Shown one piece after another: positions 2,074-9,673 of a stretch of 9,851 nt of DNA (positions within the stretch are counted from its first letter, which is position 1; each line of letters starts with the position of its first letter). The position numbers were made by a program, and so were the translations under genes. The DNA comes from Smithella sp. ME-1 (GTDB lineage: Bacteria > Desulfobacterota > Syntrophia > Syntrophales > Smithellaceae): the NCBI GenBank assembly GCA_000495415.1, contig AWGX01000768.1, positions 1 to 9,851 on the forward strand, read 5' to 3'. Below the pieces are notes generated by a model. That model saw only the letters and a list, made by a program, of their open reading frames with translations, was not told the origin of the DNA and did not search any database.

Positions 2074-2940
2074 TTAACCAGGAAGTTTAAGAAATGAGCC
2101 AAGGTATGAATCAAACGACTGGGGATCAAGTTTGCACAGTCCGGCCAGGGGATAAAAAGTCATCTCTCCAAAGTATATCTTACTGTTGACAACAATAAAA
2201 TCCACCCGGACAAATGGGAAGCCTCTGGCTAGTATAGCGGCATATTCAAGCATTAGGTCAATTTGCGGTGGTCTTGTAACGGGTTGCTGCAAAGGAGGCT
2301 CTATATATTTATTCTCTAAAAGATTCAGGTCAAGGTCGAACATATTTACCCTATGTAATTCAGGTGTATATTCATTTATTTCTACAAGGCGCGCAACGCC
2401 GTCATAGCAGTAAAAACCGTATTCATAAAGCGTTTCGCCATTTTTTGTCAGATGTTCCTCACAGATAACACGGGGGATAATGTTTTTATAACCCCATTCT
2501 CTGAATGCAAAGTAATGATTGGCTTTAAGATATTTTTTCAGAAGTTTTCGGGAATGATTCCAGTCCAGTTCCGATTTTTTTTTGCAGTATATATTTTGTC
2601 CGCTGCCATGATTAACTTTCATTACGAATGCGTCCGGAAGTTCACTTAGATCAATATCTTCAGCTTTTTCGTAAACACCATATAATTTTTTCAATAATTC
2701 CGGCCCGACCTTGTCCTCGACAAATTTTCGTACTTCGTATTTATCCGAACATTTTGTGAGAATATCATCACGCCAATTTAATTTAAGCCACTGAATTTTT
2801 TCGGTGAAGGTCCGGGGATTCCGTAAGTTAAGACGTTTACGTACTCTTCTTTTATATAAAAATGAAAGGTATATTCTGTCAGGCAAGTTCCGTATTAAAA
2901 AACTTCTGGCGAGAATGAAAAATAAATCACTTTTTAGCAT
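2074..2940 (-). CDS. TupA-like ATP-grasp protein
   Basis: A 288-aa cytoplasmic protein of the TupA-like ATP-grasp family, often annotated as a glycosyltransferase in polysaccharide clusters. The family start is clear: LPDRIYLSFLYKRR (19-32), then NLRNPRTFTEKIQWLKL (38-54). Further typical pieces are the substrate/nucleotide-binding stretch FVMKVNHGSGQN (105-116), ICEEHL (159-164), YEYGFYCYDG (172-181) and the acidic, probably metal-binding segments VRVDF (244-248) and FGEMTFYPLAGL (257-268). The namesake is linked to teichuronopeptide synthesis, where a peptide is joined to a glycan, so amide or ester ligation is a reasonable expectation. The gene starts 30 bp after the radical SAM gene with no clear ribosome site. 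Placement inside a peptide/PqqD/radical SAM operon is unusual and suggests it acts on the modified peptide or joins it to something, but an unrelated role in cell-surface glycan assembly cannot be excluded. Confidence 0.88.
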   Translation of the reverse strand: MLKSDLFFILARSFLIRNLPDRIYLSFLYKRRVRKRLNLRNPRTFTEKIQWLKLNWRDDILTKCSDKYEVRKFVEDKVGPELLKKLYGVYEKAEDIDLSELPDAFVMKVNHGSGQNIYCKKKSELDWNHSRKLLKKYLKANHYFAFREWGYKNIIPRVICEEHLTKNGETLYEYGFYCYDGVARLVEINEYTPELHRVNMFDLDLNLLENKYIEPPLQQPVTRPPQIDLMLEYAAILARGFPFVRVDFIVVNSKIYFGEMTFYPLAGLCKLDPQSFDSYLGSFLKLPG

Positions 2941-2970
2941 ATAAATGATTAATCGTATCCAGCACTGTTA

Positions 2971-4452
2971 TCAGTAGATTTCGTAAAGCCCGCTGCCGAT
3001 ATATTCCCATGTTTTCAAATAACACAGATTGTCTTTTTCATTCATCATTTCATTTATATCGGCTTTCGTTTCTAAACTATAGTCGCGATAGAATCTTTTA
3101 AAGACATCACGCTCGTTCATTTTTTCAATAAATAACTCCTGAAAACTCTTTATGGCTACAGGACTCTTTATCGTTATTTCGTGTAAAAGTTTTCTTTCAA
3201 TCAGAATATTTCGTTGAGCATTCAACACGACTTTTTTGATATTTTCATCCTCATCGCCGCCGACAGTTGTTAACAGCGGCGTGAAATAATTTATAATAAG
3301 GCCATGCTTTCTGAAATCTATATTTTTCAAAAGCGAATGATGAAAAAATAATTTATTGTTGTTTTCGTTAAAAAACCACAAGCTGTCGCTACATTTACTT
3401 CCGTTAAATACCTTGATAATGTTTTCTATATTCACCGGTATATCCTGGATGGAAAGTCTTCTGATAAATCCGTATTCAGTCAGATCCTCGTAACTTTCTT
3501 TAATATAAGATTGTAATCTCTCCCTGTAGCCTTTTTTCTGAAATCTATGTTTATAAATCGGCGAACAATAGTTGATGGATAAGCCGATGTTATTATCCAG
3601 GACATATTTAATGAGCCGCAGCGCGGTCATCTCCGATTCCAAAACAGCTATATTGGGCTGATGTAAAAAGGTGTAATTTCGATCAATAAATTGCCTGTAA
3701 CAATTCTGGTTAGCTAATAATTGATGCAAATTTAAATGCGCCACGCCTATCGCTTGCATTAGCGGCAGACATTTTTTTAACGTTTCATAATCTTCCGGAA
3801 TGGCGGGAATTTCAACTGTCACTCTGTCAATAATACCTATCGCCATTTTTACAGCTTTCAAACTGTATTTTTTGGCCGCGATATCGAAACGTATTTCATT
3901 CAGACCGGCTTTTTTAAGGGCTTTTAACTTATTCTTATCTACCAGATCACCGTTCGTGTATACCCAGATATAGATTCCCCTGCCCAGCCTTTCCCTGATT
4001 TTTTTTATGTATGTAAGTACTTCTTTAAATTTTAAAAAAGGTTCTCCTCCGGAAAAACTCACGCCTTTAAATTTAAATTTTTCAAGATAATCAACATAGT
4101 CTTCCGCATTATCAAAGACCAGCCCTGATTCATTTGGCACCTCGTCCTTTTCATTTTTTCTGTTCTGAGGACAAAAGAAACATTTGGCCGTACACAGGGA
4201 ACCGATAAAAATGCATGACCATATACCCCTTCCGCAAGTTATACATCCGGGAGACAACGGCCCTGTTGATATTTTACTTTCGTTAAAATGTTTTAGAACT
4301 TTACCGGATATGGATTTCAGTAATTCGTTTCTTTTCCGATTAGCTTTTTTTGCTTCTTCTTCCGAAAGCCATTTCATTTCCTGATAAGGCCATCCGACTT
4401 GTTCACGGGTATAACCAATGTCAGAATCTTTGATTACTTTATCATAGGACAT
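2971..4452 (-). CDS. radical SAM enzyme, COG2108/PFL-activase-like, RiPP maturase candidate
   Basis: A 493-aa radical S-adenosylmethionine enzyme. The cluster-binding motif is C87-X3-C91-X2-C94 (CTAKCFFCP), followed by the SAM-binding FSGGEPF (133-139) and YTNGD (165-169), and the barrel continues to about residue 300. Three more cysteines precede the motif at 70, 73 and 80 in GCITCGRGIWSC, a pattern I associate with proteins resembling COG2108 (pyruvate formate-lyase activase relatives). The C-terminal 190 residues have only scattered cysteines (C354, C477), so no SPASM or twitch cluster is visible. It begins 6 nt after the PqqD-like stop codon and is almost certainly co-expressed with it. 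A radical SAM plus stand-alone PqqD next to a short W-x-K-P peptide gene argues for peptide modification. The exact reaction cannot be read from the sequence. Confidence 0.9.
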   Translation of the reverse strand: MSYDKVIKDSDIGYTREQVGWPYQEMKWLSEEEAKKANRKRNELLKSISGKVLKHFNESKISTGPLSPGCITCGRGIWSCIFIGSLCTAKCFFCPQNRKNEKDEVPNESGLVFDNAEDYVDYLEKFKFKGVSFSGGEPFLKFKEVLTYIKKIRERLGRGIYIWVYTNGDLVDKNKLKALKKAGLNEIRFDIAAKKYSLKAVKMAIGIIDRVTVEIPAIPEDYETLKKCLPLMQAIGVAHLNLHQLLANQNCYRQFIDRNYTFLHQPNIAVLESEMTALRLIKYVLDNNIGLSINYCSPIYKHRFQKKGYRERLQSYIKESYEDLTEYGFIRRLSIQDIPVNIENIIKVFNGSKCSDSLWFFNENNNKLFFHHSLLKNIDFRKHGLIINYFTPLLTTVGGDEDENIKKVVLNAQRNILIERKLLHEITIKSPVAIKSFQELFIEKMNERDVFKRFYRDYSLETKADINEMMNEKDNLCYLKTWEYIGSGLYEIY

Positions 4453-4458
4453 AATAAA

Positions 4459-4770
4459 TTAAGCCTTTAAAACCTTGACCAGCAATTTTCTCTTAATCAG
4501 CCCTTCCACAAACCCGATAACGTCCTTTTCAATAACCTTTACCGGTGCCTTAAATTCGGCGGCCAAATTCTTTACTATATCCTTCAGGCTTTTATATCCG
4601 TCCAGCCTTTGCCAGATAACCTGTCCTGTTGCGTTGAGAAAGTATGGCTCATTGTCCATGTCATCTTCACCAGACACGACGGAAAAAAGAATGATGTCAT
4701 TCTCAACCAGGCGCACCACAACATTGTCGGATGCCGTGTACACGGCATCCGTCTTAATTTTTATTTTCAT
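4459..4770 (-). CDS. PqqD-like peptide chaperone (RiPP recognition element)
   Basis: A 103-aa stand-alone PqqD-family protein. The family signature is good: an N-terminal strand region rich in Val/Ile (residues 17-31), then PYFLNATGQVIWQRLDGYKSLKDIV (42-66), matching the usual LN-x-T/S-G-x-x-IW-x-x-L-D-G-x-x-(S/T) pattern, and a C-terminal helical part ending KRKLLVKVL. PqqD proteins bind the leader of a ribosomal peptide and present it to the partner radical SAM enzyme. Here the partner gene follows after 6 nt and a candidate peptide gene ends 77 nt upstream. An AGG about 9 nt before the ATG is the only ribosome site, much weaker than that of the peptide gene. Codons 7-15 contain a perfect 24-bp palindrome that could fold in the mRNA close to the start. 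The length is slightly above the roughly 90 aa of PQQ-pathway PqqD. Confidence 0.9.
   Translation of the reverse strand: MKIKIKTDAVYTASDNVVVRLVENDIILFSVVSGEDDMDNEPYFLNATGQVIWQRLDGYKSLKDIVKNLAAEFKAPVKVIEKDVIGFVEGLIKRKLLVKVLKA
4728..4751. repeat. perfect 24-bp palindrome inside the pqqD-like gene
   Basis: CGGATGCCGTGT (4728-4739) is followed immediately by its exact reverse complement (4740-4751). It covers about codons 7-15 of the PqqD-like gene. In RNA it would give a GC-rich stem of about 10 bp with a small loop, around 20-43 nt into the coding sequence. No T-run follows, so it is not a standard terminator. It may be an operator, an RNA-processing or translation-damping hairpin, or chance. 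Confidence 0.8.
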
Positions 4771-4847
4771 AAAATTTACCTGAAAAAAACTTGCTGATCC
4801 CGGTGTTAATGACGCTTGCGATACTGAAATTTAAGTCTTGAAATTTA

Positions 4848-4997
4848 TTATACAAAATCCGGCAAATAAGGCGGAGGAGAAAGAGGACCAAGACCAAAGC
4901 GCACATCGCCATTTCGAGATGAACCGGCAACCTTCTTTGTTTTCTTTCGTTTCACAACTTCGACCTGAGGTTTCTGCCACTGATTTACTTTCTTCAT
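4848..4997 (-). CDS. putative RiPP precursor peptide, 49 aa
   Basis: A 49-codon gene with an ideal AGGAGG ribosome site 6 nt before its ATG and a strong promoter upstream. The peptide starts MKKVNQWQKPQVEVV; the W-x-K-P motif at 7-10 recalls PqqA and leaders of other radical-SAM-modified peptides. Residues 16-22 are very basic (KRKKTKK), followed by a Gly/Ser/Asn linker (VAGSSRNGD, 23-31). The C-terminus VRFGLGPLSPPPYLPDFV (32-49) is rich in Pro and aromatic residues and has no Cys or Thr; it is the likely core. It is first in an operon with a PqqD-like protein and a radical SAM enzyme, the normal place for a precursor. There is no hydrophobic signal peptide. I do not recognise it as a member of a named peptide family. 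The alternative, a small basic protein unrelated to the enzymes, is less likely given position and leader motif. Confidence 0.8.
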   Translation of the reverse strand: MKKVNQWQKPQVEVVKRKKTKKVAGSSRNGDVRFGLGPLSPPPYLPDFV

Positions 4998-5058: not shown

Positions 5059-5087
5059 TTTATACAAATTTTTTAATCATAAGTCAA
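5059..5087 (-). promoter_or_regulatory. sigma70-type promoter of the RiPP operon
   Basis: On the minus strand TTGACT (5082-5087, 5/6) is followed after exactly 17 bp by TATAAA (5059-5064, 5/6). Transcription would begin near 5052, leaving a leader of about 55 nt before the peptide ATG. It lies in the 113-bp gap after the last glycosyltransferase gene, so the peptide operon can be expressed separately from the glycosyltransferase block. An 8-bp inverted repeat (TATAAACT 5032-5039, AGTTTATA 5057-5064) overlaps the -10 element and could be an operator. Confidence 0.75.
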
Positions 5088-5110: not shown

Positions 5111-6244
5111 TTATACACCTTTGTTCTTCAGACGAATTTTTCCATTTTCGCGGATTACAATACCTTGTTCCATATCTGCAAATTGCGCCTTTTCGTAATA
5201 CTGCCGAACAGCATCGTCATAGGCTTTGCGTTTCCGGGCCGATGGCTCTTCCCACTCACCTCTGAGTCTCAACCAACGCAAAATTCGTCCGATTTCTCCT
5301 CTTATATTCATATACAGATCGTGTAAGTTCCATTGCTCGTCAAGCCATCCGGGCCACGGAGAATCCTTAAGAAATTCCTTATAGAGTTTATAGCCTGTCA
5401 TGTCCGGAAACAGACTCCTGCCATAGACGAACCGGCGCCACGGTTTTTCATTTCCGGCATGATGAATGATGACCGGATTGGCAATGCCAACAGTGCCCCT
5501 CTTGTGCCATCGTGGCTGAGGACGTGCATTCCATATAGGTGATAATTCCGCAATGCATCCATCCAGAATGGCATTGAGCGCATCTTCATCCGGAAGAAAA
5601 CAGAGATCTGGATTTTGCCGGATAAATTCCAGCGCCCTTTCACCTAAGTTTTCATTGTTCCATCTTTTGACATCAATATAGAGAACACCTGCATTAAAAT
5701 ATCGATAAGGCTTGGTCATTTCCAGTTTATGGAAATGACCTTCAACTTCTTTGCGCCGTCTCTCACTTAAATCTGCCAAAATACGTCCAGCGGGCACAGC
5801 CGCCAATGCAAACGGTGCCGTATCCAGAGAAAATATCGGCGATATGTCACCGTGTATAGTCAGATCGCAGTCCAGATAGAGGATTTTATCATAACGGCCG
5901 GCAAGATGTTCGGCCAGCGGTAGTTTCATCAGCGTTGCCGGAGACAGCCTTTCACAATATTTACCGACACCTCGTTGACGTGAGAGGTCCATATCGTCAC
6001 AAAGTATAATGCCACGCTGTTTCATCCAGTGCCGATGGACATCCGTAACTTCCGAAGGCTCCGCGAAAATAATGGTATCAAAGCGGTTATCCGAACTTTT
6101 TGAGTGGGACTTCACCGCATCGGTAACGAATAACGCGGGAATCAACATTCTTCTGTCCGTGCAAAGACAAACGGCGTTTCTTGTTGTCTGTTTATGAAAA
6201 GTTCCGGCAGAGTCCATATTACCTGCCTGTAAATCTTTTTTCAT
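5111..6244 (-). CDS. glycosyltransferase family 8 protein
   Basis: A 377-aa cytoplasmic, retaining-type GT8 sugar transferase. After a 22-residue extension the catalytic domain starts at NAVCLCTD (23-30). It has the metal-binding DxD in LYLDCDL (D125, D127), the acceptor-side NAGVLYID (184-191), LPDEDALNAI (217-226) and the C-terminal metal/phosphate motif HHAGNEKPW (261-269), all as in LgtC-like enzymes. About 100 further residues are rich in Trp, Arg and Lys and could contact the membrane. The start at 6244 is supported by GAAGG (6252-6256) 7 nt upstream. The gene overlaps the end of the preceding transferase gene by 26 nt in another frame. By eye it is richer in G+C than the other two transferases, so it may have a different history. 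Sugar and acceptor are unknown; surface polysaccharide or lipopolysaccharide is likely, the neighbouring peptide possible. Confidence 0.92.
   Translation of the reverse strand: MKKDLQAGNMDSAGTFHKQTTRNAVCLCTDRRMLIPALFVTDAVKSHSKSSDNRFDTIIFAEPSEVTDVHRHWMKQRGIILCDDMDLSRQRGVGKYCERLSPATLMKLPLAEHLAGRYDKILYLDCDLTIHGDISPIFSLDTAPFALAAVPAGRILADLSERRRKEVEGHFHKLEMTKPYRYFNAGVLYIDVKRWNNENLGERALEFIRQNPDLCFLPDEDALNAILDGCIAELSPIWNARPQPRWHKRGTVGIANPVIIHHAGNEKPWRRFVYGRSLFPDMTGYKLYKEFLKDSPWPGWLDEQWNLHDLYMNIRGEIGRILRWLRLRGEWEEPSARKRKAYDDAVRQYYEKAQFADMEQGIVIRENGKIRLKNKGV
5714..5740. repeat. 11-bp perfect hairpin inside a GT8 gene
   Basis: GGTCATTTCCA (5714-5724) and TGGAAATGACC (5730-5740) are exact reverse complements around the 5-nt loop GTTTA. 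It encodes part of GHFHKLEMTK in the GT8 protein. No T-run follows on either strand, so it is not a simple terminator. Function unknown, possibly none. Confidence 0.6.
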
Positions 6245-7268
6245 TTATTAACCTTCTTAAGAATTTATAAATATCAGGATGGTTTTTTTCAAGAAACATT
6301 CTTACAGTTCTTTTTAACTTATTATAAAAACTTTTTACATTTATAAAAAAATTGCCCTTCATCCCTCTCACTATACCCAAAATCATTCTGGATACTTTGC
6401 CCGAAAAGCCATTTTCGCCCAGCGCTATGGCCTTGTATTCTTCCAGTAAAACCGTGCAGTCTTCGAGGTAATCTCTCTGAATATAAAATGCAAAATGGCC
6501 AAACAGAGCATCACCGCAAATCATGTTGGGACGATTCAGCCTCTGCGGCAGGTTCTGTGATAAAAATGATTCGTCACTATGAATGAAACGCCATGCTCCC
6601 GTCCTGTAATCTATCGTTTCATCAAAGCCTGAATCTAACTCCGGCAGGCCTTTTAAATCACGTCCGAACCAGCATATTACACCAATAGAAAATCTTCTGA
6701 AATCATCCATTACCACGTTATCGATTTTCCATTTGTTTAGATTTTCCGATTTTATATCATTAATAAATATTCTGTGGAGTTTCCCGGCAAATTTTGGATT
6801 CTGCCAACCGTTAATATCCAGGCATTCATATCCGACTTTGCCCCATTGCAGCGGAATAATTCCTTCCTTTTGAAGAAAGTGGGAACATACCGCGTTATTA
6901 ACAATGTTGCCGAAAACAAAAAGAGGTTTTGGATTATTAACTCTGTTATCAATAAGATTTTTAATAGCATCCTTTTCAAAAAAACAGATATCATCATCGA
7001 ATTTGATATAGATGGTATCGTCATCAATATAATCTTTGTAATACTGCCAGATACTGTCCACTGATTTTTTAAGCATTTTTTTTCTGTTGATTTTAAAGAA
7101 ATCGGGATGCTGCGCGGCAAGCATTTCAATATAAGCAATGTCATCCTTAACAGAAGTATTCAGCCAGAAGTGATGTTCCGAAATGTACCGGCGATTCCTG
7201 AGAAGATATTCCGCAAGTATTTCCAGATAATGTTTGCGTCCCGCAGGAGTAACAGTAATGACCTTCAT
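6219..7268 (-). CDS. putative glycosyltransferase with DDD motif, unclassified
   Basis: A 349-aa protein that looks like a GT-A fold sugar transferase but that I cannot place in a named family. The start MKVITVTPAGRKHYLEILAEYLL resembles a nucleotide-sugar binding strand and helix. The segment TIYIKFDDDICFF (85-97) offers the metal-binding DxD/DDD motif, and later DDFRRFSIGVICWFGRDL (188-205) and HSDESFLSQNLP (230-241) resemble acceptor and base regions of GT-A enzymes. A central segment (118-160) has several Asn, Trp and Gly residues. The C-terminal tail FLEKNHPDIYKFLRRL (325-340) is shared with the GT8 protein encoded just before it. It begins 15 nt after that gene and overlaps the next by 26 nt, so the three are probably one transcription unit. 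Probable role: one transfer step in a cell-surface glycan. Confidence 0.75.
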   Translation of the reverse strand: MKVITVTPAGRKHYLEILAEYLLRNRRYISEHHFWLNTSVKDDIAYIEMLAAQHPDFFKINRKKMLKKSVDSIWQYYKDYIDDDTIYIKFDDDICFFEKDAIKNLIDNRVNNPKPLFVFGNIVNNAVCSHFLQKEGIIPLQWGKVGYECLDINGWQNPKFAGKLHRIFINDIKSENLNKWKIDNVVMDDFRRFSIGVICWFGRDLKGLPELDSGFDETIDYRTGAWRFIHSDESFLSQNLPQRLNRPNMICGDALFGHFAFYIQRDYLEDCTVLLEEYKAIALGENGFSGKVSRMILGIVRGMKGNFFINVKSFYNKLKRTVRMFLEKNHPDIYKFLRRLINEKRFTGR

Positions 7269-7283
7269 TAAACATTCCCGATA

Positions 7284-8321
7284 TTACATCAATGCTTTGT
7301 TTCTTAACCTTCTTTGCAATTCAAATATTTGCGGATAATTCTCTTTGAGGAAAACACCTGCACGCAGCCTGTATTTATTAAATCTGTAATAATAAGATAT
7401 TTTATAACGGCAAAATTTATATAAATTACGTTTATGCAGATTCTTTAAATAAAAATCATCTTCCGCCTCTTCTCGTTTACTCAATATTTTTTTAGGAGCT
7501 TGCGGATTAGCAATATCAATCAGGTCGGCTTTATCCAGATTCGACTTCCATTCGAAGTTCAAAGGACTTTTTGGATTCCAAGCCTTCCCTCCCGGAAAGC
7601 TGGAATATGTGTGTAAAATAATCCCTTTCAAATTCTCAGGATGGCACCCCGAATTATAAACTTCATAACTGGGACAAATATTATAAACCTGCGAAAGCTT
7701 CTGCCACTTATCATAATAATAGATATTTAGAACCGTTTCTTCTGAAATTAAAAGTATATCCTTAAAATGAAAAAATATTTGTTTAATATTATGAAATTCA
7801 TCTTCGGATATTATATCTGTGCTGTAAGCCATGACACCGGAATTAAACGCGGGCTTGTTCAAATCACATTTACTTTTCAGCTCTTTGAACAGATATTTAT
7901 TGCGTCTATTTCGATCTTGAAACTGTCCTTTCAATAAAGTACGCGATATATTTAAAATTCTTACCGCCGCAAATCCTTTTACTTCAGCGAGAGAGTCCAG
8001 AGAACCTCTTACGATTATATCCCCATCGAGGAACACAACATTTTTCCATTTCTTGAATTCAGGTGTAAATAAATAGAATTTACAAAGAGTAGTTAACGGA
8101 GCATGGCCGATACGGGTCTCAGATTCCGTCAATATCGGTTCGCATTCTCTGACCAGAATGCCCTTTTCACGGAACCACTGCAACTCTTTTTCAGGAATAT
8201 CATAAGCCAGTAGCATATAATCACCTTGCCAGCCGGCATTCCAATATACACTGGAAAAAAGCTGCTTTGCCTGCTCGATGTAATTGCCATCAGCCAGAGT
8301 AACCAACAAATCCTTCTTCAT
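7284..8321 (-). CDS. glycosyltransferase family 8-like protein
   Basis: A 345-aa probable GT8 sugar transferase. The N-terminal strand LLVTLADGNYIEQAKQLFSSVYW (5-27) is typical of GT8/glycogenin-like enzymes. The DxD is in VVFLDGDIIV (D99, D101), followed by AFNSGVMAYS (158-167), the family N-x-G motif with Ser at its centre, and ILHTYSSFPGGKAWN (235-249), the usual H...GKxW metal/diphosphate site. The last 60 residues are rich in Tyr, Arg and Lys, and end with FLKENYPQIFELQRRL (324-339), nearly the same tail as in the following transferase. It is the first gene of the transferase block. No strong ribosome site or clear promoter is visible in the 152-bp gap upstream, so transcription from the Fe-S gene promoter is possible. 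Donor sugar and acceptor are unknown. Confidence 0.88.
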   Translation of the reverse strand: MKKDLLVTLADGNYIEQAKQLFSSVYWNAGWQGDYMLLAYDIPEKELQWFREKGILVRECEPILTESETRIGHAPLTTLCKFYLFTPEFKKWKNVVFLDGDIIVRGSLDSLAEVKGFAAVRILNISRTLLKGQFQDRNRRNKYLFKELKSKCDLNKPAFNSGVMAYSTDIISEDEFHNIKQIFFHFKDILLISEETVLNIYYYDKWQKLSQVYNICPSYEVYNSGCHPENLKGIILHTYSSFPGGKAWNPKSPLNFEWKSNLDKADLIDIANPQAPKKILSKREEAEDDFYLKNLHKRNLYKFCRYKISYYYRFNKYRLRAGVFLKENYPQIFELQRRLRNKALM

Positions 8322-8473: not shown

Positions 8474-9673
8474 CTACGTTGTTATTCTTGTCTCGGATTT
8501 CTTGAGCATCGGCAGGAACGCGGTGCGTTTGTTCTCTACCAACTCAACAACGGAGCGAACGCACTGATGTGCGCATTGACCGCAACCGATGCACTTCCTG
8601 GTATCCAACTCCACTTTTTTCTCCACAACTTTTATTGCAGCTGTCGGGCAGAACTTCTCACACAAACCGCATCCATTGCATTTTGATATGTCTTTAATTT
8701 TAGCCATGTAAAAGCAGCTATAACGCAAAGGGACAGCACCCATATTGTAGGAACGCAATATTCCGCAGCAGTCCCAGCAGCAATTGCACAGCGCTATTTG
8801 AGGAAGATTGGCATCATCTTTTTCGTGGAACACCGTATGGATGGCGCCACAATCTCTTGCCTTTTGGATTATATCAAAAGCTTCTTCTTTGCTGATTTGC
8901 CGCATATAGCCGTACTGCATATAAGTTTTGATATGATCGCCAAAACCCATACATGCTATATCGTCCGGCATCTTAAAGCGGCATGGATTCCCAACATTTT
9001 CCGTTACTTTACGGCACATGCAGGCTTTGAACTGACCAATTATGCTTTTGCTACCATAGTCCGAAATCATATCATTAATGGAACTTGCCGGATAAATCAT
9101 AGAATCCTGCACAACTATTTTTTCATCAATAATGATTTTGGACTTCCCTTTTTCATTTTTTGCCTCACGGACTGTGCCGACACTCTGATTGGACACTGGT
9201 GCGTACTTACCCATGAGATCCATTACCTTTCTGATGGGAAAGAAATTACGGTTTCGCAGCGAGCTAAAAAAAGTCATATATCTTCTCGCGAATTCCTTTT
9301 CTTCCGGTTTGCCGAGCAAGTAAGTAACAATGCCTTCAAACCAGCCGACAATAAAAGGATTAAGGGTATATTGTTCCTGGCCCGCTTCAGTGTATTGTGT
9401 TCTTATAAATGCTTTTTGTTTAAGAATTTCGAATAATGGATTGAATTTTTCACTACTCATGCCGCTGAGCGCTAAAGCTTGCTCATATGAGTACAAACCT
9501 GTGCCCATCTTCAAGAGTAGAGCAAGCTCTTCCGGCGTTGTAACCAAATCAATGGCCTGGAGTATCGGCTCAAACGGCGGCATAAATCTCTTGTTTTGTC
9601 TATTCATCAAAATGACTAGTTTTCTAAGATCACCCTTCTTGTTGCGCAGAACTATTTTATTATCTTTTGTCAT
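8474..9673 (-). CDS. 4Fe-4S ferredoxin-domain protein with winged-helix-like N-terminus
   Basis: A 399-aa cysteine-rich redox protein. Residues 34-110 look like a small helical/winged-helix domain (TPEELALLLKMGTGLYS, then MSSEKFNPLFEILKQKAFI). The middle has C218-x-C220, C231 and C241 in a FKACMCRKV...CRFKMPDDIACMGFGDHI arrangement, then the unusual cluster CNCCWDCC (296-303) and C320. The C-terminus has two complete ferredoxin motifs: C332-X2-C335-X2-C338-X3-C342-P and C361-X2-C364-X2-C367-X3-C371. This order of parts matches a family of 4Fe-4S binding proteins frequent in anaerobic Desulfobacterota and other strict anaerobes whose function is not established to my knowledge. Electron transfer coupled to a further cluster is likely. 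AGGAG 7 nt before the ATG fixes the start. It has its own promoter and no evident functional link to the genes downstream. Confidence 0.9.
   Translation of the reverse strand: MTKDNKIVLRNKKGDLRKLVILMNRQNKRFMPPFEPILQAIDLVTTPEELALLLKMGTGLYSYEQALALSGMSSEKFNPLFEILKQKAFIRTQYTEAGQEQYTLNPFIVGWFEGIVTYLLGKPEEKEFARRYMTFFSSLRNRNFFPIRKVMDLMGKYAPVSNQSVGTVREAKNEKGKSKIIIDEKIVVQDSMIYPASSINDMISDYGSKSIIGQFKACMCRKVTENVGNPCRFKMPDDIACMGFGDHIKTYMQYGYMRQISKEEAFDIIQKARDCGAIHTVFHEKDDANLPQIALCNCCWDCCGILRSYNMGAVPLRYSCFYMAKIKDISKCNGCGLCEKFCPTAAIKVVEKKVELDTRKCIGCGQCAHQCVRSVVELVENKRTAFLPMLKKSETRITT

What the first reader, a model, noticed from the sequence alone, without database searches (positions are those of the whole stretch)
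2074..4997. Candidate new radical-SAM RiPP operon: peptide, PqqD, radical SAM, ATP-grasp
A 49-aa peptide gene with a consensus ribosome site and its own promoter is followed by a stand-alone PqqD-like protein, a radical SAM enzyme and a TupA-like ATP-grasp protein, then an ABC exporter. PqqD plus radical SAM plus a short W-x-K-P peptide is the known logic of PQQ-type and other radical SAM peptide pathways. The combination with a COG2108-like (non-SPASM) radical SAM enzyme and a TupA-like ATP-grasp does not match any named class I know. Co-transcription and common function are inferred from order and spacing.
Basis: partly seen in the sequence, partly recalled or inferred. Interest (0 to 1): 0.88.

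Follow-up and report, generated by a model that had tools for sequence, protein, structure and literature searches.

The report
New radical-SAM peptide-modifying gene cassette
Smithella-type bacteria carry a small gene cassette that looks built to make a chemically modified, perhaps sugar-decorated peptide with a radical enzyme of unknown function.

Summary
In detail: peptide (49 aa), PqqD, radical SAM (rSAM) and TupA-type ATP-grasp genes lie in order on the minus strand. They form a co-inherited cassette. Of 155 genomes of the class, five carry the close rSAM; the same five carry the peptide, plus one hit judged chance. All five have PqqD and TupA beside the rSAM; the window is a sixth case. 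34 of 34 peptides gathered share a W-x-x-P leader motif and a core unit [YF](xx)G[ILV]GP without conserved Cys, repeated in four. The peptide is under purifying selection and its promoter is conserved in 6 of 6 loci. Corrections: two GT8 glycosyltransferases upstream accompany the cassette in 6 of 6; the ABC exporter does not belong, since one relative has the window's flanking genes side by side with the cassette elsewhere. Best reading: a PqqD-guided RiPP whose Gly/Pro-rich core is modified by an rSAM with four extra invariant cysteines, then perhaps glycosylated and ligated. Chemistry, product and role are unknown. New variant of a known kind.

The parts
4848..4997 (-). precursor peptide gene, 49 aa (MKKVNQWQKP... 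leader, ...VRFGLGPLSPPPYLPDFV core)
   Evidence: present in 6 of 6 loci, 32 profile hits, purifying selection
4968..4979 (-). W-x-x-P leader motif (residues 7-10), proposed PqqD recognition sequence
   Evidence: 34 of 34 peptides gathered; W/Y/LxxP/L/I is listed as a recognition motif of RRE groups including PqqD in PMC12710340 section 7
4872..4901 (-). core unit R-F-G-L-G-P-L-S-P-P (residues 33-42)
   Evidence: unit [YF](xx)G[ILV]GP in 34 of 34 peptides gathered, 2-3 copies in 4 of 34
5059..5087 (-). promoter of peptide gene: TTGACT-17 nt-TATAAA
   Evidence: same arrangement in 6 of 6 loci; not listed by the generic scan
4459..4770 (-). PqqD-type RiPP recognition element, 103 aa
   Evidence: PF05402 52.6 bits; solved relatives TbiB1 E 1.4e-6 and PqqD E 3.4e-5
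4728..4751 (-). 10-bp hairpin inside the start of the PqqD gene; possible regulatory element
   Evidence: 58 of 60 cells paired in six cassettes, 3 pairs with changes on both sides, reached by 38 of 500 shuffles
2971..4452 (-). radical SAM enzyme, 493 aa; CxxxCxxC 87/91/94 plus invariant C70, C73, C80, C296
   Evidence: PF04055; the seven Cys invariant in 96 of 96 aligned sequences and 23 of 23 loci; model pLDDT 94.2
2074..2940 (-). TupA-like ATP-grasp ligase, 288 aa
   Evidence: PF14305 163.5 bits; in 23 genomes with this rSAM family, only in the 5 cassette genomes, beside the rSAM; no solved relative at E below 0.1
5111..6244 (-). GT8 glycosyltransferase b (LgtC-like)
   Evidence: PF01501 117.8 bits; LgtC 1ss9 E 2.5e-15; next to peptide in 6 of 6 loci
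7284..8321 (-). GT8 glycosyltransferase a
   Evidence: PF01501 54.5 bits; in 6 of 6 loci; no solved relative at E 0.01
6219..7268 (-). third, weakly GT-like gene; variable accessory
   Evidence: only sub-threshold Galactosyl_T; of the six loci, in the window and L030 only, 88% identity
41..2001 (-). ABC transporter pair: flanking genes, judged NOT part of the cassette
   Evidence: 93 and 96% identical in L030, where they sit next to the ferredoxin-like gene without the cassette; same flank as in the window in L031

Best explanation
A RiPP pathway of a kind for which I found no name. The discrete PqqD binds the W-x-[KQ]-P leader of the small precursor and presents it to the rSAM enzyme, which modifies the Gly/Pro-rich C-terminal unit [YF](xx)G[ILV]GPx(x)PP; the unit has been duplicated in some species, as modified cores are. 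The two GT8 enzymes then perhaps glycosylate the modified peptide, and the TupA-type ATP-grasp enzyme joins it, through a carboxylate, to an amino acid or a glycan. Shown: gene content, co-inheritance, conservation and selection on the peptide, conserved promoter, core repetition. Inferred from family knowledge: PqqD binding and rSAM action on the core. Inferred from neighbourhood alone: the GT8 and ATP-grasp steps. The rSAM chemistry is unknown; four invariant extra cysteines suggest an auxiliary Fe-S cluster.
For: Same 5 of 155 genomes hold close rSAM and peptide, each with adjacent PqqD and TupA. 34 of 34 peptides gathered have W..P and the core unit, 4 of 34 repeat it (the set came from a profile, which favours shared words). 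dN/dS below 0.5 in 15 of 15 pairs. Conserved promoter 6 of 6. The 57 close rSAMs, chosen by identity, form one clade, support 0.79; the five with a known FGLGP peptide fall in a 7-tip clade, support 1.0. The same six genes recur in differing surroundings, and L030 has the window's flanking genes adjacent without the cassette. Another sign of this rSAM family with glycosyltransferases and PqqD: L049 has a PF11397-rSAM fusion, a PqqD-GT2 fusion and a protein with WTKP and Thr/Ser/Pro repeats.
Against: No product, no binding data. No exporter or leader peptidase recognised in the cassette. GT8 and TupA families are common in surface-glycan loci (recalled), so they may act on a glycan. The six rSAMs with Y-type peptides lie outside the FGLGP clade, but their own grouping has support 0.07. 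L049 is a single locus and its search class held only 3 genomes. The contig-length test covers the best 120 of 156 PqqD and 120 of 2540 rSAM hits, and distant PqqD proteins would have been missed. Several loci are MAG fragments; in L002 the ATP-grasp gene runs off the contig.
Confidence: 0.65

Rival explanations
1. Surface-glycan pathway: GT8 enzymes and TupA build a cell-surface glycan, and the modified peptide is the unit that is hung on it (a teichuronopeptide-like peptide-glycan).
For: Two GT8 genes in 6 of 6, a further GT or GT-like gene in some; PF14305 is named for TupA; no exporter recognised in the cassette.
Against: No flippase, polymerase or sugar-nucleotide gene among the ten window ORFs scanned; the core unit is repeated in 4 of 34 peptides, which fits multi-core RiPPs better.
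Confidence: 0.2
2. Glycosylated redox cofactor in the manner of mycofactocin: the small peptide is trimmed to a few residues that become a cofactor.
For: Same logic of peptide, PqqD-like protein, rSAM and glycosyltransferase (mycofactocin recalled).
Against: Window peptide matches no NCBIfam model at E 0.1; the extreme C-terminus varies; core repeats in 4 of 34 would serve no purpose for a single cofactor; no peptidase or dehydrogenase among the ten window ORFs scanned.
Confidence: 0.08
3. The rSAM is a free-standing enzyme of the wider family with another substrate and the peptide is only a neighbour.
For: In 17 distant rSAM loci read, of 19 found (26-38% identity), no homologue of the peptide was found.
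Against: Co-occurrence in the same 5 of 155 genomes and adjacency in 6 of 6 loci.
Confidence: 0.05

Closest known systems
PQQ pathway (PqqA/PqqD/PqqE)
   Same: discrete PqqD, rSAM enzyme, short precursor
   Different: PqqE is a SPASM enzyme acting on Glu and Tyr (recalled); here no SPASM domain is hit in the window's rSAM, the core is Gly/Pro-rich, and no PQQ model passes its cut-off
Mycofactocin (MftA/B/C/F)
   Same: precursor, PqqD-like protein, rSAM and glycosyltransferase together (recalled)
   Different: no Val-Tyr C-terminus (the rule is recalled), GT8 genes, TupA-type ligase, repeated cores in some
Lasso peptide systems with discrete RRE (TbiB1)
   Same: PqqD profile matches TbiB1 (5v1u, E 1.4e-6); W/Y-x-x-P type leader motif
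   Different: no lasso protease or cyclase among the ten window ORFs scanned
RRE-glycosyltransferase fusions and rSAM clusters reported by RRE-Finder (PMC7470986, section 10 read)
   Same: RRE, rSAM and glycosyltransferase in unassigned clusters
   Different: those clusters are pictured in a supplement not seen here; identity with this system not tested
Graspetides
   Same: ATP-grasp ligase near a small peptide
   Different: ligase is PF14305 (TupA); the word TupA has 0 occurrences in the graspetide survey PMC8939145 (passages seen)

Membership tests
RRE-dependent RiPP | discrete PqqD/RRE protein | tested here: met
   PF05402 52.6 bits, cut-off 23.4
RRE-dependent RiPP | conserved small precursor with recognition motif and core, co-inherited with enzymes | tested here: met
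RRE-dependent RiPP | enzyme-installed modification on the core | not testable with these tools
   needs expression and mass spectrometry
PQQ pathway | PqqD/PqqE/PqqA equivalogs | tested here: not met
   PqqD 42.4 of 46 bits, PqqE 18.6 of 381.35, window peptide no hit
SPASM-type sacti-/ranthipeptides | Cys in core as thioether donor | tested here: not met
   a Cys in 4 of 34 peptides only, none conserved
SPASM-type maturases | C-terminal cysteine-rich SPASM domain | tested here: not met
   no SPASM hit for the window's rSAM; after CxxxCxxC only C296 is invariant (96 of 96); C228 in 82, C354 in 65, C251 in 51, C477 in 4 of 96
Lasso peptide | protease and Asn-synthetase-like cyclase | tested here: not met
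   absent from the ten window ORFs scanned; other loci not scanned for them. One of 34 peptides weakly hits a paeninodin lasso model, E 0.03
Mycofactocin | MftA/MftB models | tested here: not met
   neither is named among the 0 peptide and 7 PqqD hits at E 0.1; that the library holds these models is recalled
Graspetide | ATP-grasp making lactones or lactams in the core | tested here: inconclusive
   ligase is PF14305; chemistry untested
rSAM with its own RRE domain | C-terminal domain of rSAM (380-493) is PqqD-like | tested here: inconclusive
COG2108 | membership of that COG | not tested
   only a source name, 'pyruvate formate-lyase activating enzyme-like'

The most novel reading that the evidence does not exclude
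A new class of anaerobic glyco-RiPPs: an rSAM with an auxiliary Fe-S cluster held by C70, C73, C80 and C296 functionalises glycine, proline or the aromatic residue in a repeatable [YF](xx)G[ILV]GPxPP unit, making handles that GT8 enzymes glycosylate and a TupA-type ligase caps or couples to the cell surface. The same rSAM family, fused to a PF11397 GlcNAc transferase (a family whose known members act on polypeptides, recalled) beside a Thr/Ser/Pro-repeat protein in L049, would be a second branch of the class, so that this enzyme family primes Pro-rich peptides for glycosylation without oxygen.
Probability: 0.3. Interest if true: 0.88.

Novelty: new variant of a known kind. Interest (0 to 1): 0.72.

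Why it matters
It gives a compact, testable gene unit for a radical enzyme family with no known substrate that I could find, and pairs radical SAM chemistry with glycosyltransferases and a ligase on a peptide without conserved Cys. It also points to natural products of syntrophic anaerobes (Smithella), a group little mined so far as I know, and gives genome miners a motif (W-x-[KQ]-P with G[ILV]GP) to find more.

Tried and rejected
ABC exporter as part of the system: rejected. In L030 the ferredoxin-like gene and the ABC genes are neighbours (about 107 bp apart) while the cassette ends about 3.9 kb before them; the ABC genes are 93 and 96% identical to the window's and the ferredoxin-like gene 89%, the cassette genes 56-82% except the accessory GT-like gene (88%).

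PqqD-like domain at the rSAM C-terminus: not accepted. Topology fits, and L049's rSAM has a sub-threshold PF05402 match (19.5 of 23.4 bits), but hhalign gave P 0.14 (the run used a wrong option and was repeated), Foldseek best E 0.48, and Pfam on 96 members did not list PF05402 among the 25 of 40 families shown (by the table's order an unshown family has at most one member).

G111 peptide hit: rejected as a chance Pro-rich match.

Context of 45-54% relatives (sources name Omnitrophota for some): could not be read; I found no way to a genome of that kind. A viral-contig scan gave one relative. Of the 19 distant loci, L027 and L029 were not fetched with context.

Literature: 9 searches listed no paper whose title, abstract start or passages seen describe this combination; most listed papers were not opened, and subscription papers and supplements were not seen. 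Papers seen: PMC12710340 (passages and section 7), PMC7470986 (passages and section 10), PMC8939145, PMC2824669, PMC4289311 (passages). All others only in listings.

Rows dropped before counts: A1 holds the window and 29, A4 the window and 95, of 120 listed rSAM rows (2540 matched); the tree left out L038 and L039 and cut 330 residues (the transferase part) from L049; one search counted six partial high-identity rows with the close rows. The close clade was defined by identity before the tree.
Full report
What is there. On the minus strand the window reads: a ferredoxin-like protein (8474-9673), GT8a (7284-8321), a weakly GT-like gene (6219-7268), GT8b (5111-6244), a 49-aa peptide (4848-4997), PqqD (4459-4770), rSAM (2971-4452), TupA-type ATP-grasp (2074-2940) and an ABC pair (41-2001). 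The four genes of the finding are confirmed at the given coordinates. No whole genome is held for the window; named close relatives are Smithella and other Deltaproteobacteria MAGs; Smithella is of the order Syntrophales.

Is it a unit? A scan for the rSAM gave two close loci (L001, L002, 76% identity). A profile search of the 155 genomes held of that class gave five at E below 1e-145. The peptide profile rang in the same five and in G111 at E 9.5e-4, where the match is a Pro-rich piece in a stretch with stops. In the 23 genomes with a member of the rSAM family at E below 1e-30, PF14305 occurs in these five only, each time beside the rSAM. PF05402 occurs in 11 of the 23; it lies beside the rSAM in the five, about 1.6 kb from it in G048, and on the same contig in G231. 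All six cassettes, the window included, have GT8, GT8, peptide, PqqD, rSAM, ATP-grasp in this order, with the extra GT-like gene between the GT8 genes in the window and L030; in L002 the ATP-grasp gene runs off the contig. In 395 genomes drawn from the phylum, 15 had a match at E below 1e-30, three of them close ones already known.

Boundaries. In L030 the ferredoxin-like gene and the ABC genes that flank the window's cassette are direct neighbours, about 107 bp apart, while the cassette ends about 3.9 kb before them. Local DNA similarity to the window ends at the ferredoxin stop codon and resumes 22 bp before the ABC gene. The ABC genes are 93 and 96% identical to L030's, the ferredoxin-like gene 89%, the cassette genes 56 to 82% (GT-like gene 88%). 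L031 has the window's arrangement. I infer that the cassette moves, or was inserted or lost, as a block and that the exporter is not in it.

The peptide. A profile of six found 32 proteins at E 0.01 or better among 46 candidates, two of them identical to members of the query. With the window and L001, 34 of 34 have W-x-x-P near the start and the unit [YF](xx)G[ILV]GP; 13 have FGLGP, 21 the Y-x-x-G form; three have two units and one has three; a Cys occurs in 4 of 34 and is never conserved. The profile favours members with these words, so the 34 of 34 is partly built in; the repeats are not. dN/dS is below 0.5 in 15 of 15 pairs. NCBIfam gives only weak, mixed hits for the 34 (best E 0.0057, one to a lasso precursor model at E 0.03). 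W/Y/LxxP/L/I is described as a recognition sequence of RRE groups including PqqD (PMC12710340, section 7). The five rSAMs with a known FGLGP peptide fall in a 7-tip clade with support 1.0; the six with a Y-type peptide are outside it, but their own grouping has support 0.07. A TTGACT-17-TA-rich promoter lies 67-90 nt before the start codon in 6 of 6, although the generic scanner missed it.

Wider family. In 17 distant loci read of 19 found (26-38% identity), BLAST with the window's peptide found no homologue and a motif scan no similar small ORF. One locus is telling: in L049 the rSAM is fused to a PF11397 GlcNAc transferase (that this family's known members act on polypeptides is recalled), upstream lies a PqqD-GT2 fusion, and about 160 bp downstream a 159-aa ORF with a sub-threshold Tat-signal match, the letters KWTKP, and 5.3 copies of a 36-bp repeat giving Thr/Ser/Pro-rich repeats. 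W-x-[KQ]-P occurs in 25 of 4200 short ORFs looked at, so the motif alone is weak, and no second such locus was found in the 3 genomes searched. It is the only independent sign that the family works with glycosyltransferases on repeat peptides.

Mechanism and confidence. Real co-inherited cassette: about 0.95. RiPP with PqqD-bound leader and rSAM-modified core: about 0.8. Glycosylation of that peptide: about 0.5. ATP-grasp acting on it: about 0.5. Chemistry of the rSAM step: unknown. Contig-length coincidences back the first point: 18 of 60 close rSAM rows against 0 of 60 others match a PqqD row, with 0.4-0.7 expected for the whole lists; only the nearest 120 of 156 PqqD and 120 of 2540 rSAM proteins were listed, so distant PqqD partners would be missed.

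Novelty. Known kind (RRE-guided radical SAM RiPP), new variant: rSAM subfamily without a specific model, new core, TupA-type ligase and GT8 pair. Nine searches of the open library listed no paper seen to describe it (details under Tried and rejected); RRE-Finder mentions RRE-glycosyltransferase fusions and rSAM clusters without detail in the part read.

Noticed in passing
window 4728-4751: Perfect 10-bp hairpin inside the start of the PqqD gene; in six cassettes 58 of 60 cells pair, with changes on both sides at 3 of 10 pairs (38 of 500 shuffles reach the paired share; slid versions 27-50%). It may set the ratio of peptide to enzymes, or follow from codon limits.
   Followed up: partly
L049 8368-14948: PF11397-rSAM fusion (804 aa), PqqD-GT2 fusion (765 aa), a weak GT2 match (408 aa), and a 159-aa ORF with KWTKP and Thr/Ser/Pro repeats: possible second branch of the system.
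   Followed up: partly
L073 7836-8792: A 191-kb contig of the viral collection encodes a 318-aa relative of the rSAM (31% identity over residues 62-330) with the C-x2-C-x6-C motif; neighbouring ORFs not identified.
   Followed up: no
L030 (G038): Ferredoxin-like gene and ABC pair adjacent without the cassette: an empty site for the window's arrangement.
   Followed up: yes
window 6219-7268: GT-like gene with no Pfam family over cut-off, overlapping GT8b by 26 bases; of the six loci shared only with L030, at 88% identity.
   Followed up: no
L034 5449-7953: NTP_transf_5, PqqD and a sub-threshold HPr-kinase-like gene just upstream of a distant rSAM relative.
   Followed up: no
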